Origin: Acidimicrobiales bacterium
GTDB taxonomy: Bacteria > Actinomycetota > Acidimicrobiia > Acidimicrobiales > Poriferisodaliceae
DNA length: 12,993 nt
Direction: 5' to 3'
Assembly (NCBI GenBank): GCA_020631315.1
Contig: JAHDHM010000060.1
Location: 1-12,993 of the forward strand
Shown here: in pieces, positions 5,502-9,913 of the stretch
Layout: every line of letters starts with the position of its first letter
Numbering within the stretch: position 1 is the first letter of the stretch
Made by a program: the position numbers and the translations under genes
Notes under the pieces: generated by a model
What the model was told of the DNA's origin: nothing
Seen by the model: only the letters and a program-made list of their open reading frames with translations
Database searches by the model: none

Positions 5502-5896
5502 GCGGCCCGTTCGGAGCGCTCGACGCCGCCAGGTCCGGTGCCTCGATGGCCTCGATGTGGATGGACGTGCTGGGTCACAACCTGGCGAACATCAACACGG
5601 TCACCGCGACGGACCAGGAGGCCTTCCGGGCCAAGTACGTGGTGCTCACCGAGGACGCGGCCGGCGAAGGCGTCGACGTCCAGGAGATCGTCGCTGCCTC
5701 CGGTGAGGCGCCCCTGCTGTACGACCCAGATCACCCCCTCGCTGACGAGGACGGCATGGTCCAGGCCCCGATGGTCGACACCGCAGGCCAGATGTCGGAC
5801 CTGATCCTCGCCAGCCGCCACTACCAGATGAACCTCCAGGTCGTGAGTGCCGCCGAAGAGGCGTACCGCTCCGCCCTGAACATCGGGAGGCCCTGA
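5498..5896 (+). CDS. flgC: Flagellar basal-body rod protein FlgC
   Basis: A 132-residue proximal rod subunit that assembles with FlgB above the MS-ring. The N-terminal helix contains the rod motif LGHNLANINTVTA (25-37), followed by FRAKYVVL (43-50). The C-terminal half has the FlgC hallmark YDPDHPLADEDGMVQAP (75-91) and the terminal helix ASRHYQMNLQVVSAAEEAYR (105-124), ending in NIGRP. The start overlaps the flgB stop by 4 nt, and no strong Shine-Dalgarno is seen, so translation probably depends on coupling to flgB. The stop shares one base with the fliE start. Confidence 0.94.
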   Translation: MSGPFGALDAARSGASMASMWMDVLGHNLANINTVTATDQEAFRAKYVVLTEDAAGEGVDVQEIVAASGEAPLLYDPDHPLADEDGMVQAPMVDTAGQMSDLILASRHYQMNLQVVSAAEEAYRSALNIGRP

Positions 5897-6192
5897 TGAA
5901 CCCCATCTCCGGCGTCAGCGCCCTGTCCTCGGTCGGCATGTCACCGAGCGTCGGTGTCACCTCTGCGGCCGACTCGGGCTTCGGCGAGATGCTCTCCGGC
6001 GCCCTCCAGTCCGTGTCCGACACCGAACGCGCCGCCGACGACCTCGTCACCGCACTGGCTGCGGGCGAGGACGTCCAGCTGAGCGATGTCGCCATCGCCT
6101 CGACCGAGGCTGCGCTCGCCGTCGAACTCCTCGTCACCGTCCGAGACCAGGCCGTGCAGGCCTACCAGCAGATCGCGAATCTCCAGCTCTGA
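5896..6192 (+). CDS. fliE: Flagellar hook-basal body complex protein FliE
   Basis: A 98-residue export substrate that joins the MS-ring (FliF) to the rod and is needed to open the export gate. The family pattern is seen in FGEMLSGALQSVSDTERAADD (near 29-49), the LAAGEDVQLSDVAIASTEA segment (54-72) and the C-terminal AVELLVTVRDQAVQAYQQI (75-93). The length is typical and the C-terminus intact. FGEML at 29-33 fits the FxxxL export motif. GGAGG at 5886-5890 lies 5 nt before the ATG. The stop overlaps the start of fliI by one base (TGATG). The usual next genes fliF, fliG and fliH are absent here. Confidence 0.93.
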   Translation: MNPISGVSALSSVGMSPSVGVTSAADSGFGEMLSGALQSVSDTERAADDLVTALAAGEDVQLSDVAIASTEAALAVELLVTVRDQAVQAYQQIANLQL

Positions 6193-7526
6193 TGACCCTC
6201 ACGTCCGCCCCGATCGGCCTCGAGCCGAAGCTGGCCGCCATCGGCGGTCGTCTTCGCGCGCTCGACGGTGCGAAGCGTCGGGGCAGCGTCGTGCGTGTCC
6301 GAGGCAGCGAGGTCGAGATCCGAGGTCTGACCTCTGCGGTGTCGGACATGGTCGAGATCCATGGCGCCGCCGGCGTCGTGCCGGGTCAGGTCATCGGTGT
6401 GACGCCGTCGTCCGTCGTCGTCGCGCTGTTCGGCTCGGTCGACGGCATCCGTCGCGGCGATCCGGTCGCACCGCGACCCGACGCTCGCCCGCGCATGGGT
6501 GCCGACCTGATCGGCCGCGTGGTGGACGGTCTCGGCCGCCCGATCGACGGCGGCCCCGACCTGGCCGGTGTGCCGACGATGGTCGACGGCACCACGCCGA
6601 GCCCGCTCGAGCGTGCCCGTGTCCAGGAACCACTGGCCACCGGAGTGCGGGTGCTCGACCTGATGGTGCCCGCCGCCAAGGGGCAGCGTCTCGGCATCTT
6701 CGGTGGCTCCGGCGTCGGCAAGTCCACGCTGCTCGGCATGATGGCGCGCGGCACCGAAGCCCAGATCAACGTGATCGCCCTCATCGGTGAGCGTGGCCGA
6801 GAGGTCCGCGAGCTCATCGAGGACGATCTCGGCCCCGAAGGTCTCGCCAAGTCGATCGTCGTCGTGGCCACGTCGGACCAGCCGGCGATCATGCGCCGAC
6901 GCGCTGCCGACCTGGCCGTGGCGTACTCCGAGTTCTTCTCCGATCGCGGTGCCGACGTCCTCCTGTTGTTCGATTCGTTGACCCGTCTCGCGATGGCGCA
7001 GCGAGAGCTCGGTCTCGCTGCCGGCGAACCGCCGACCGCTCGTGGCTACACGCCGTCGGTGTTCTCACTGCTTCCTGCGTTGCTCGAGCGGACCGGCCCA
7101 CGTGCTGCCGGTTCGATCACCGGGTTCTTCACGGTGCTCGTCGACGGCGATGACATGAACGACCCGATCGCCGACGCTGCCCGATCGATTCTCGATGGCC
7201 ACGTGGTGCTCGACCGCCGCCTGGCACACCGCAACCAGTACCCCGCCGTCGATCCACTCGCATCGCTCAGCCGTCTGGCGAGCGTCGTGTCCTCCCCCGA
7301 GGACGCCGAAGCCGCGGGCCTCATGCGTTCGGCGCTCGCCGCAGTCGAAGAGGTCAGGGACCTCGTCGAGGTCGGCGCCTACTCCCCCGGTTCGAACCCT
7401 CGAGCCGACGCCGGCCTGGCCGTGGAACACGACATCTGGAACCTGCTCGCGCAGCGTCCGGACGAGACCACCACCGCCGATGACGCGCGGGCCGCAGCTC
7501 GTGCCCTGGTCGGGGGTGTCGCATGA
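6192..7526 (+). CDS. fliI: Flagellar type III export ATPase FliI
   Basis: FliI is the F1-beta-like hexameric ATPase at the base of the flagellar export apparatus; it unfolds and delivers rod, hook and filament substrates. The 444-residue product has an N-terminal beta-barrel domain (about 25-95), Walker A GGSGVGKST (171-179), the GERGREVRE motif (199-207), Walker B LLLFDSLTR (257-265), ARGYTPSVFSLLPALLER (283-300), and the conserved GHVVLDRRLA...YPAVD (336-354). All catalytic motifs are intact and the length is typical. FliI is chosen over F1-beta or Rho from these motifs and the context. It begins one base inside the fliE stop with no clear Shine-Dalgarno, and ends in an ATGA overlap with fliJ. 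Its usual regulator fliH is not in the window. Confidence 0.96.
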   Translation: MTLTSAPIGLEPKLAAIGGRLRALDGAKRRGSVVRVRGSEVEIRGLTSAVSDMVEIHGAAGVVPGQVIGVTPSSVVVALFGSVDGIRRGDPVAPRPDARPRMGADLIGRVVDGLGRPIDGGPDLAGVPTMVDGTTPSPLERARVQEPLATGVRVLDLMVPAAKGQRLGIFGGSGVGKSTLLGMMARGTEAQINVIALIGERGREVRELIEDDLGPEGLAKSIVVVATSDQPAIMRRRAADLAVAYSEFFSDRGADVLLLFDSLTRLAMAQRELGLAAGEPPTARGYTPSVFSLLPALLERTGPRAAGSITGFFTVLVDGDDMNDPIADAARSILDGHVVLDRRLAHRNQYPAVDPLASLSRLASVVSSPEDAEAAGLMRSALAAVEEVRDLVEVGAYSPGSNPRADAGLAVEHDIWNLLAQRPDETTTADDARAAARALVGGVA

Positions 7527-7957
7527 CGAGTCGGATGAACGTCGTCGTACGGCTGCGCCAGCTGCGCGAACGAGAAGCCCAGAAGTCGCTCGCCGACATC
7601 CGAGTGCGTGTCGAGGCGGCCCGTGAGCATCTCGATTCGCTGCGCCAGCCGATGTACGACGGGGGCACGCTCGGCGTGGAACACCTGATCGCGCTGCGTG
7701 CCCAGGGTGTCGTCCGGGCCTAAGAGCTCGAGGCCGCCCGTGCCGAGCTCGAAGAGTCGACGAACCAGGTCAACGAAGCAGTGATGGCTTTCCGCGCTGC
7801 CACGAGTCGCCGACGCGCCGCGGAGTTGGCAGAAGAACAACGGCGCACCGCTCGTGCTGCAGTCGCCGCCCGCGCTGCCCAGCTCTCGCTCGACGAGATC
7901 GTCATGGCGCGGCGCGCCTGGCTCGACGCGAGGGCAGAGGAGGACGACGATGTCTGA
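7523..7957 (+). pseudogene. fliJ: fliJ-like flagellar export protein gene interrupted by an in-frame TAA
   Basis: FliJ is a coiled-coil protein that sits in the FliI ring and couples ATPase activity to the export gate. The frame opens at ATG 7523 (ATGA overlap with fliI) and gives 66 residues, including RLRQLREREAQKSLADIR, then meets TAA at 7721-7723. With that one codon ignored, the same frame runs on to TGA 7955-7957 with heptad-like, Ala/Glu/Arg-rich sequence (ELEAARAELEES, RRRAAELAEEQRRTARAA, MARRAWLDARAEED). The full frame has 144 codons, close to the usual FliJ length of about 147. No frameshift is needed. The downstream part has no start with a Shine-Dalgarno; GTG 7781 and ATG 7784 are the only near candidates. 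Alternatives are a sequencing error, a recent nonsense mutation, or a split product. Sequence identity of FliJ is always low, so the name rests on position and coiled-coil character. Confidence 0.8.
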
Positions 7958-8585
7958 TCTCAGCGTGACGTCGGGCACGGCGTTGTCCGGCCGGCTCGCC
8001 GGTCTCACTGGTGGCTTCGGCGGCATGCGGTCCTTCGCTGACGTGTTGGCCTCTGCCCGCCCGGTCGGTCCGAAGCTCGACCTGCCGTCGGATCCGATTC
8101 CGTCGGCGGTCGTCTCTCAGACCCCGTACACCGTGCCCACCGCCGGGATCGCGACCGTGCCGGCCAGCATCTCGAACGCGTCGCTGCCGGACCGAGCGCA
8201 GCAGTGGTTGGGGCCGATCGCAGATGCAGCGCAACGCCATGGCGTCGACGCCCATCTGCTCACCGCACTGGTGTGGACCGAGTCCGCGTTCCGGCCCGAC
8301 GCCGTGTCACCCGCGGGTGCGCTCGGCCTCGGCCAGCTGATGCCGGGGACCGCCGGGGACCTCGGCGTCGATCCGCACGACCCGATCCAGAACCTCGACG
8401 GCGCCGCCCGCTACCTGCGCGAGCAGCTCGACCGCTTCGGCTCCGACGAGCTCGCCCTCGCTGCCTACAACGCCGGCCCCGGCCGCGTACTGCAGGCCGG
8501 TGGCATCCCGAACATCACCGAAACCCAGTCGTACGTCCGGATCGTGACGGCCCGCCGCGACCAGCTCCGAGGAGATGCATCGTGA
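7950..8585 (+). CDS. Lytic transglycosylase (SLT domain), flagellar operon-associated
   Basis: A 211-residue peptidoglycan hydrolase that would cleave glycan strands, here probably to let the rod cross the wall. The SLT (Slt70-like) fold covers about 84-205: ADAAQRHGVDAHLLTALVWTE (91-111) with presumed catalytic E111, AVSPAGALGLGQLMPGTA (118-135), and AAYNAGPGRV (171-180). No signal peptide or transmembrane segment is seen at the N-terminus, which is a Ser/Gly/Pro-rich linker with FADVL at 29-33, an FxxxL motif like that of flagellar export substrates. ATG 7950 has GGAGG at 7939-7943 (6-nt spacing); the frame extends upstream, but only as shadow sequence within fliJ. It overlaps the fliJ end by 8 nt and overlaps the fliK GTG by 4 nt. 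Confidence 0.93.
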   Translation: MSDLSVTSGTALSGRLAGLTGGFGGMRSFADVLASARPVGPKLDLPSDPIPSAVVSQTPYTVPTAGIATVPASISNASLPDRAQQWLGPIADAAQRHGVDAHLLTALVWTESAFRPDAVSPAGALGLGQLMPGTAGDLGVDPHDPIQNLDGAARYLREQLDRFGSDELALAAYNAGPGRVLQAGGIPNITETQSYVRIVTARRDQLRGDAS

Positions 8586-9913
8586 GTGTTCCCATCCTGA
8601 CCGCCGCCCCCGACATCGGCCAGAGCGTCGTGCGCCCCGGTACCGAACCCGAGGCACAGGGCGAGTTCTCGCGGATGCTGAACGACGAACTCCACGTCGA
8701 TGACACAGCAACCATCGACGACGCAGCATCCATCGACGACGCAGGGATCGACGATGTCGCCACCCAGGTCGAGGACGCCGTCGAACTGTTCGACCCGACC
8801 ACCGCCCTGATCGAGGAGGTGTCGGCCCAGGTCGAGCCCGAGGCGGTGGTGCTCGATCCGACGGTCGTCGCACTGACGCTGCCGTCGGGTGCGTCGGCCG
8901 CTGACGTCGTCGATGTTCCGCTCGCCGAGCTGAACGGAACGCGGCGTGAGGCCGACCAGGTCACCGGAGCAGCGGAACTCGATGCTGCGACCGACGATCC
9001 GCTGATCACGTCGACGGTCGGACTGCTCGCCGAGAGTCGGGCAGTCGCGCCGGCCGGTGTCGAGGTCACGGTCGATACCCAGGTGGCGACGGACGACGTG
9101 TCGGTCGCAGCAGACGTCGCAATGGCAACGGGTGTCAGCGCGACGGAGATCGGCGCCACCCCGGTCGAAGGTGACACGCAGATCGACGCCGAGCTCGCCG
9201 GACTCGACGCCCCGGGCGCAGCCGTCGACTCTGATCCGTCGGCTGCTGCCGACCTGATCGGATCCGACGCAGTGGCGGGAACCGATGTCGCCACACCCGC
9301 ACAAGCCGCGTCGTCCGAGACCGACGGCGCAGCGACGTTGGGCGCGACCGATGGTGCCGCGGACGATGGTGCCGTCGCCGACGCCGACGCAGCGACGTCG
9401 ATGCAGCAGACGACGGCAGCAGAGAACTCCGGCCGGGCATCGGCCGACGTGAGCACGACCGCCACCACGGCCACCACTGCCGAGGGCGCCTCGCCGCTCG
9501 CCGCGACCGGTGCGTTGTCGACCGCGAGCGGTCCCACTGCCCCGCCCGTGGGTGTGGCGGGATCGCCGACCGGGCCTGACGCCATGGTCGAGACGACCCT
9601 GTCGCGCATCGCCGAGACGATCGAGGCCATGTCGGCGCAGCCGCCCCCACGGTCGATCTCGCTCGACCTGAGCGAACTCCACGGCATCCGAGTGCGCATC
9701 TCGATCGATGCCGGAGAGATCTCCGTCGACGTGTCGGACGCCGGTGCCGGTTCCTCGGGCTCCGATCACTGGCAGCGCCAGCTGCAGGACTCGTTGCACG
9801 AACGCCGCCGTGGCGGTCGCCGCTTCGGCGACGACGCATCTGCCCCGACGGCAGCCACTGCAACAGCTTCCACATCCACCACCGAGCGGACCGACCGCGG
9901 TCTGCGCCTCTGA
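8582..9913 (+). CDS. fliK: Flagellar hook-length control protein FliK
   Basis: FliK is the secreted molecular ruler that sets hook length and switches export specificity from hook to filament proteins. The 443-residue product has a short N-terminus with FSRML (29-33), an acidic, Ala/Asp/Thr/Val-rich, probably disordered middle (about 36-335), and a C-terminal domain (about 336-410) with SLDLSELHGIRVRISIDAGE (360-379) and DHWQRQLQDSLHERR, matching the FliK switch-domain pattern of two beta strands and a closing helix. The GTG start overlaps the previous stop (GTGA) and has AGGAG at 8570-8574, 7 nt upstream. There is no lysine, no cysteine, and no Phe/Tyr/Trp from 71 to 396. Naming rests on the C-terminal pattern and on position before flgD. 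Confidence 0.85.
   Translation: MSVPILTAAPDIGQSVVRPGTEPEAQGEFSRMLNDELHVDDTATIDDAASIDDAGIDDVATQVEDAVELFDPTTALIEEVSAQVEPEAVVLDPTVVALTLPSGASAADVVDVPLAELNGTRREADQVTGAAELDAATDDPLITSTVGLLAESRAVAPAGVEVTVDTQVATDDVSVAADVAMATGVSATEIGATPVEGDTQIDAELAGLDAPGAAVDSDPSAAADLIGSDAVAGTDVATPAQAASSETDGAATLGATDGAADDGAVADADAATSMQQTTAAENSGRASADVSTTATTATTAEGASPLAATGALSTASGPTAPPVGVAGSPTGPDAMVETTLSRIAETIEAMSAQPPPRSISLDLSELHGIRVRISIDAGEISVDVSDAGAGSSGSDHWQRQLQDSLHERRRGGRRFGDDASAPTAATATASTSTTERTDRGLRL
8713..8758 (+). repeat. Short degenerate coding repeat in fliK (IDDA units)
   Basis: CATCGACGACGCAG starts at 8713 and again at 8731 (18-nt step), followed by a third, diverged ATCGACGAT at 8747 (15-nt step). It encodes TIDDAASIDDAGIDDVA, an acidic tandem unit at the start of the ruler region. 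It probably arose by slippage and could change length between strains. Confidence 0.6.

What the first reader, a model, noticed from the sequence alone, without database searches (positions are those of the whole stretch)
7721..7723. In-frame TAA in the middle of fliJ
After 66 residues the fliJ frame hits TAA, yet the same frame continues for another 77 codons with typical FliJ-like coiled-coil composition, up to a stop that overlaps the next gene's start by 8 nt. No frameshift is needed, so one codon separates a full-length FliJ from a truncated one. The complete genes in this window otherwise end in TGA 13 times and TAA once, so TAA is not a common codon here. If real, export ATPase coupling is damaged, the product is made in two pieces, or the codon is read through.
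Basis: partly seen in the sequence, partly recalled or inferred. Interest (0 to 1): 0.72.

Follow-up and report, generated by a model that had tools for sequence, protein, structure and literature searches.

The report
Private stop codon inside flagellar fliJ
One contig carries a stop codon in the middle of an otherwise normal flagellar export gene, where the relatives compared have an unbroken gene; this is most likely a sequencing or assembly error or a fresh mutation of one strain, and so ordinary.

Summary
TAA at 7721-7723 lies in frame after 66 codons of fliJ; the frame runs on for 77 codons to TGA 7955-7957, overlapping the next gene by 8 nt. Both parts align in one frame with full-length FliJ. 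All 9 protein relatives found, one of them 98% identical, have an amino acid at the stop's column. Of 35 loci with fliI, 22 gave a scored fliJ, each unbroken; the other 13 have a long open frame after fliI, judged by length and composition only. I found no split gene, conserved restart, readthrough structure or sign of recoding (TAA ends flbD). The window differs from its 98% relative at three residues only, within 24 codons, all compatible with one transversion class; two of the three, the stop included, are seen in none of the 9 relatives. I conclude that this is a private, recent lesion without function. A base error in the contig is slightly likelier than a real strain mutation; only reads can decide. 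Split or recoded FliJ is very unlikely. Interest is low.

The parts
7523..7957 (+). fliJ frame, 66 codons + TAA + 77 codons + TGA
7721..7723 (+). in-frame TAA, codon 67; 9 of 9 protein relatives and 22 of 22 scored locus frames have an amino acid here
7724..7954 (+). 3' part of fliJ, still FliJ-like (PF02050, E 4e-4, bits below the cut-off)
7745..7747 (+). codon 75, differs from the 98% relative; the window's residue is shared with five more distant relatives (P0005-P0009)
7790..7792 (+). codon 90, differs from the 98% relative; the window's residue is in none of the 9 relatives
6192..7526 (+). fliI, flagellar export ATPase; overlaps the fliJ start by 4 nt
7950..8585 (+). lytic transglycosylase (SLT) gene; an AGGAGG stretch before its ATG lies inside the 3' end of fliJ

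Best explanation
An ordinary fliJ gene that carries a private, very recent base change to a stop codon, with no biological function. I commit to a base error in the assembled contig (poor or damaged reads in a short stretch around 7720-7792) as the likeliest single cause. The gene in the cells is then most likely full length and makes the usual two-helix FliJ stalk of the FliI ring. Shown: the stop is absent from the relatives examined, and the gene around it is conserved. Inferred: that the base is an error and not a mutation.
For: 9 of 9 protein relatives have an amino acid at the column, as have 22 of 22 scored fliJ frames from genomic loci (of these 31 sequences 29 share one residue and 2 have others). 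The nearest relative is identical at 141 of 144 positions; the three differences (67, 75, 90) fall within 24 codons, and each fits a single change of one transversion class, the class that PMC12390751 (abstract seen; human exome data) ties to oxidative damage artefacts. By site count that class is 22% of the non-silent single changes possible in this frame. At 67 and 90 the window's state is in none of the 9 relatives. The window appears to be a whole 12,993-base contig (its own SLT protein P0027 is listed with that contig length), and no genome is held for it, which fits a metagenome fragment.
Against: The cluster argument is weak and post hoc: three random points fall within 24 of 144 codons with p about 0.07, and at residue 75 five more distant relatives (P0005-P0009) share the window's residue, so only two of the three differences are private. 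On the plus strand the three changes are not all of one sense, which a single damaged strand would predict. The same class is also the commonest among the window-side changes in fliI and SLT (4 to 6 of 11 explained by one base change), so it may be a bias of the lineage and not of the reads. No reads, coverage or DNA of the 98% relative could be seen, so silent differences are unknown.
Confidence: 0.52

Rival explanations
1. A genuine, recent nonsense mutation in one strain. FliJ is cut after helix 1 and 15 residues of helix 2, so the coiled-coil stalk of the FliI ring is lost; flagellar export is weakened or lost, and translation of the overlapping lytic transglycosylase gene may fall too, since ribosomes no longer reach the overlap.
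For: The stop is one substitution away from a codon for the relatives' residue (the relatives' DNA was not seen). The rest of the gene is still close to its nearest relative (66 of 66 and 75 of 77 residues), as expected of a new lesion. Flagellar genes look patchy in this family: 4 of 39 genomes have a FliI match at E <= 1e-140 (no laxer cut-off was tried there). The model of the relative puts residue 67 early in helix 2 (helices 2-41 and 52-142).
Against: No other gene of the contig looks broken, though the genes were taken from a list of stop-free frames. A second private residue (90) lies near the stop, which one mutation does not explain.
Confidence: 0.44
2. FliJ is made from two pieces: the stop ends a 66-residue part and translation restarts to give a C-terminal part that assembles with it.
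For: Both helices are still encoded in frame, and a two-helix stalk could in principle be assembled from two chains (inference).
Against: The first in-frame restart codons are GTG 7781 and ATG 7784, without an evident ribosome-binding sequence upstream. Residue 88 is not conserved. None of 35 loci shows a gene split here (22 scored; 13 by open frame only).
Confidence: 0.015
3. The TAA is read through, or recoded as an amino acid, in this organism.
For: The frame after the stop is conserved.
Against: TAA is the end of flbD in the same contig. 190 of 200 shuffles fold at least as well as the 100 nt after the stop (z +1.5). No Rfam match at gathering scores in the window. The relatives compared have no stop here.
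Confidence: 0.015

Closest known systems
[quoted passage not shown] solved structure 3AJW)
   Same: Place directly after fliI, 143 codons plus the stop codon, predicted two long helices in the nearest relative; PF02050 is listed as precomputed domain for all 9 relatives, though P0001 and P0002 score below the cut-off in my scan (23.7 and 25.8 of 28.4 bits); best PDB match of the relative's model is 3AJW (probability 0.97, but E 0.18).
   Different: An in-frame TAA after 66 codons, seen in this contig only among those compared.
Base errors and private nonsense alleles in assembled contigs
   Same: Single changed codon, absent from the relatives compared, gene otherwise conserved.
   Different: Nothing shown to differ; reads are not available.

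Membership tests
FliJ | Profile match to PF02050 over the whole length | tested here: inconclusive
   The 98% relative P0001 matches at residues 17-129, E 6e-5, 23.7 bits, under the 28.4-bit cut-off; the NCBIfam FliJ model gives 18.1 bits against a cut-off of 50.45, and another NCBIfam model (TIGR00998) scores about the same, also far below its cut-off. The window's 3' part alone: 21 bits; its 5' part alone: no match. PF02050 is precomputed for 9 of 9 relatives.
FliJ | Gene directly after fliI in a flagellar operon | tested here: met
   fliI 6192-7526 overlaps the fliJ start; flgB, flgC, fliE before, SLT, flgD and flgE after; 22 of 35 loci with fliI have a scored FliJ frame after it.
FliJ | Two-helix antiparallel coiled coil | tested here: inconclusive
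   Model of P0001: helices 2-41 and 52-142, mean pLDDT 80 but pTM 0.32; best PDB match FliJ 3AJW, probability 0.97, E 0.18, none of 286 matches at E <= 0.001. The window's own truncated product would lack most of helix 2.
FliJ | Unbroken reading frame | tested here: not met
   In-frame TAA at 7721-7723; met by 9 of 9 protein relatives, though that search could not return proteins under 0.55 of the query's length, and by 22 of 22 scored locus frames.
Programmed readthrough or stop recoding | Stop conserved among relatives, or a stimulating element after it | tested here: not met
   Stop absent in the relatives compared; fold z +1.5; no Rfam match at gathering scores.
Base error in the contig | Reads disagree with the consensus | not testable with these tools
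   No reads or coverage are held.

The most novel reading that the evidence does not exclude
A working FliJ made of two separately translated helices in this lineage, or a TAA read through in a flagellar operon as a switch for flagellar export.
Probability: 0.02. Interest if true: 0.65.

Novelty: already known. Interest (0 to 1): 0.08.

Why it matters
It matters little in itself: a private stop in one contig should not be read as a split or recoded FliJ. If the base were real in a living strain, it would mark a fresh loss of flagellar export in a family of Acidimicrobiia where flagella look patchy (4 of 39 genomes with a FliI match at E <= 1e-140).

Tried and rejected
Split gene with restart, readthrough, and code change were each tested and rejected. 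A frameshift was rejected: both parts align in one frame. An independent small gene after the stop was rejected: the 3' part aligns throughout with the C-terminal part of FliJ. A bias of the whole lineage towards one change class was considered and is not excluded: window-side changes in fliI and SLT, against more distant relatives, are of several classes, but the class seen in fliJ is the commonest (4 to 6 of the 11 explained by one base change). DNA of the 98% relative was sought and not found: no whole genome for the window, best genome relative 70% in FliI, no relative in viral contigs, no plasmid match. Searches covered the same 39 genomes three times and added nothing beyond the first. 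A sequence search of solved structures with the FliJ alignment found nothing at E <= 0.1. A paper search for premature stops in metagenome-assembled genomes returned none that hold all four terms; a search for fliJ nonsense mutations listed five papers, of which I saw passages of one, where the nonsense mutation is in another gene. A limit of the protein search: FliJ under about 79 residues could not appear, so for truncated relatives the case rests on the genomic loci.

Full report
What is there. The window is a flagellar gene cluster of a member of the Acidimicrobiia or a close relative (best FliI relatives in genomes: L001-L004, metagenome-assembled actinobacteria, three of the four titled Acidimicrobiales or Acidimicrobiia, 63-70% identical; best protein relative of FliI 95%). 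It appears to be a whole contig of 12,993 bases: its own SLT protein, P0027, is listed with that contig length. The order is a sigma factor of the sigma-70 family in the place of fliA, two genes on the other strand (mycothiol-dependent isomerase-like, P-type ATPase), lgt, flgB, flgC, fliE, fliI, fliJ, a lytic transglycosylase, a long gene without Pfam match in the place of fliK, flgD, flgE, flbD, motA. The 14 genes other than fliJ have no internal stop; since I took them from a list of stop-free frames this is partly by construction, but with the exception of the fliK-like frame they carry the expected Pfam matches.

The observation. The fliJ frame opens at ATG 7523 and meets TAA at 7721-7723 after 66 codons. 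It then continues for 77 codons to TGA 7955-7957, overlapping the ATG of the next gene (7950) by 8 bases. The 3' part still looks like FliJ: alone it matches PF02050 at E 4e-4, below the curated bit cut-off, as does the full-length relative P0001 (23.7 of 28.4 bits). Family membership thus rests on position and alignment as much as on the profile.

Relatives. A search of 5.8 billion proteins with the frame read through gave 9 proteins of 142-147 residues, the best 98% identical over the whole length. All 9 have an amino acid at the stop's column. This search could not return proteins shorter than 0.55 of the query, so truncated homologues were invisible to it. I therefore read the DNA after fliI in 35 loci: L001-L009 and L038 of the 80, and 25 of the 30, the other 5 being duplicates of the first group; L009 and L099 look like the same genome too. 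(One search found fliI in 64 of 395 genomes and fetched 30 loci, so the rest were not read.) 22 of 35 gave a scored FliJ frame, each in one unbroken piece. In the other 13 no frame scored at E <= 0.01, but each has an open frame of 134-207 codons, made up 57-70% of A, E, R, L, Q, K and V, straight after fliI, with L104 cut by its contig end; these were judged by length and composition and not scored. At the stop's column, 29 of the 31 relatives aligned (9 proteins, 22 loci) share one residue and 2 have others.

Differences from the nearest relative. Between the window and the 98% relative there are three differences in 144 residues, at 67 (the stop), 75 and 90. At 67 the window's state is in none of the 9 relatives; at 90 its residue is in none of the 9, of which 8 agree with each other. 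At 75 the nearest relative agrees with P0002 and P0004, but the window's residue is shared with the five more distant relatives P0005-P0009, so this one is not private. My polarisation used only P0002-P0004 and called all three window-side. Each difference is explained by one base change of the same transversion class, a class linked to oxidative damage artefacts in sequencing (PMC12390751, abstract seen, on human exome data). By site count that class makes up 22% of the non-silent single changes possible in this frame. The span of 24 codons has p about 0.07 for three random points, computed after seeing the data. On the plus strand the three changes are not all of one sense, which speaks against one damaged molecule. 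In fliI and the SLT gene, where only more distant relatives were at hand, the window-side changes are of several classes, but the class seen in fliJ is the commonest (4 to 6 of the 11 explained by one base change, two of the 6 being ambiguous); a bias of the lineage is thus not excluded. Taken together this leans only slightly towards a local base-quality problem.

Function of the 3' part. A model of the 98% relative has helices at 2-41 and 52-142 (mean pLDDT 80, pTM 0.32); its best PDB match is FliJ 3AJW (probability 0.97, E 0.18). A product ending at residue 66 would keep the first helix and 15 residues of the second. In Salmonella, FliJ is a two-stranded coiled coil that binds the centre of the FliI ring and activates the export gate through conserved residues in a helix-loop-helix that extends out of the ring (PMC9114704, passages seen). 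FliJ can act as a rotor axis in a rotary ATPase (PMC3665681, passages seen). So a real stop would most likely inactivate the protein (inference). An AGGAGG stretch before the next gene's ATG lies in the last codons of fliJ, so a real stop might also lower the downstream gene by uncoupling (inference).

Alternatives. Restart: the first in-frame start codons after the stop are GTG 7781 and ATG 7784, with no evident ribosome-binding sequence, and residue 88 is not conserved. Readthrough: no unusually stable fold after the stop (z +1.5), no Rfam match at gathering scores in the window, stop not conserved. Code change: TAA ends flbD.

Verdict. The sequence feature is as described. It is private to this contig among everything I could compare, recent, and without sign of function. 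I put a base error at 0.52, a genuine strain mutation at 0.44, and split or recoded FliJ together at about 0.03. Only reads can choose between the first two.

Noticed in passing
window 5896-6192 and 6192-7526; L001-L005: fliI follows fliE directly: fliF, fliG and fliH do not lie between them as in many flagellar operons (that order is recalled). The same junction is seen in L001-L005, where the fliE match ends 48-109 nt before the matched start of fliI, so it is a trait of these relatives and not a deletion in this contig.
   Followed up: partly
window 8582-9910: A 443-codon frame in the place of fliK has no Pfam match at E <= 0.001.
   Followed up: no
window 6939-6941: FliI residue 250 departs from a residue that is the same in all 17 relatives aligned; its change class is the same as those in fliJ.
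   Followed up: partly
family of L001 (39 genomes): Only 4 of 39 genomes of the family have a FliI match at E <= 1e-140, so flagella seem patchy in this family; no laxer cut-off was tried there.
   Followed up: no
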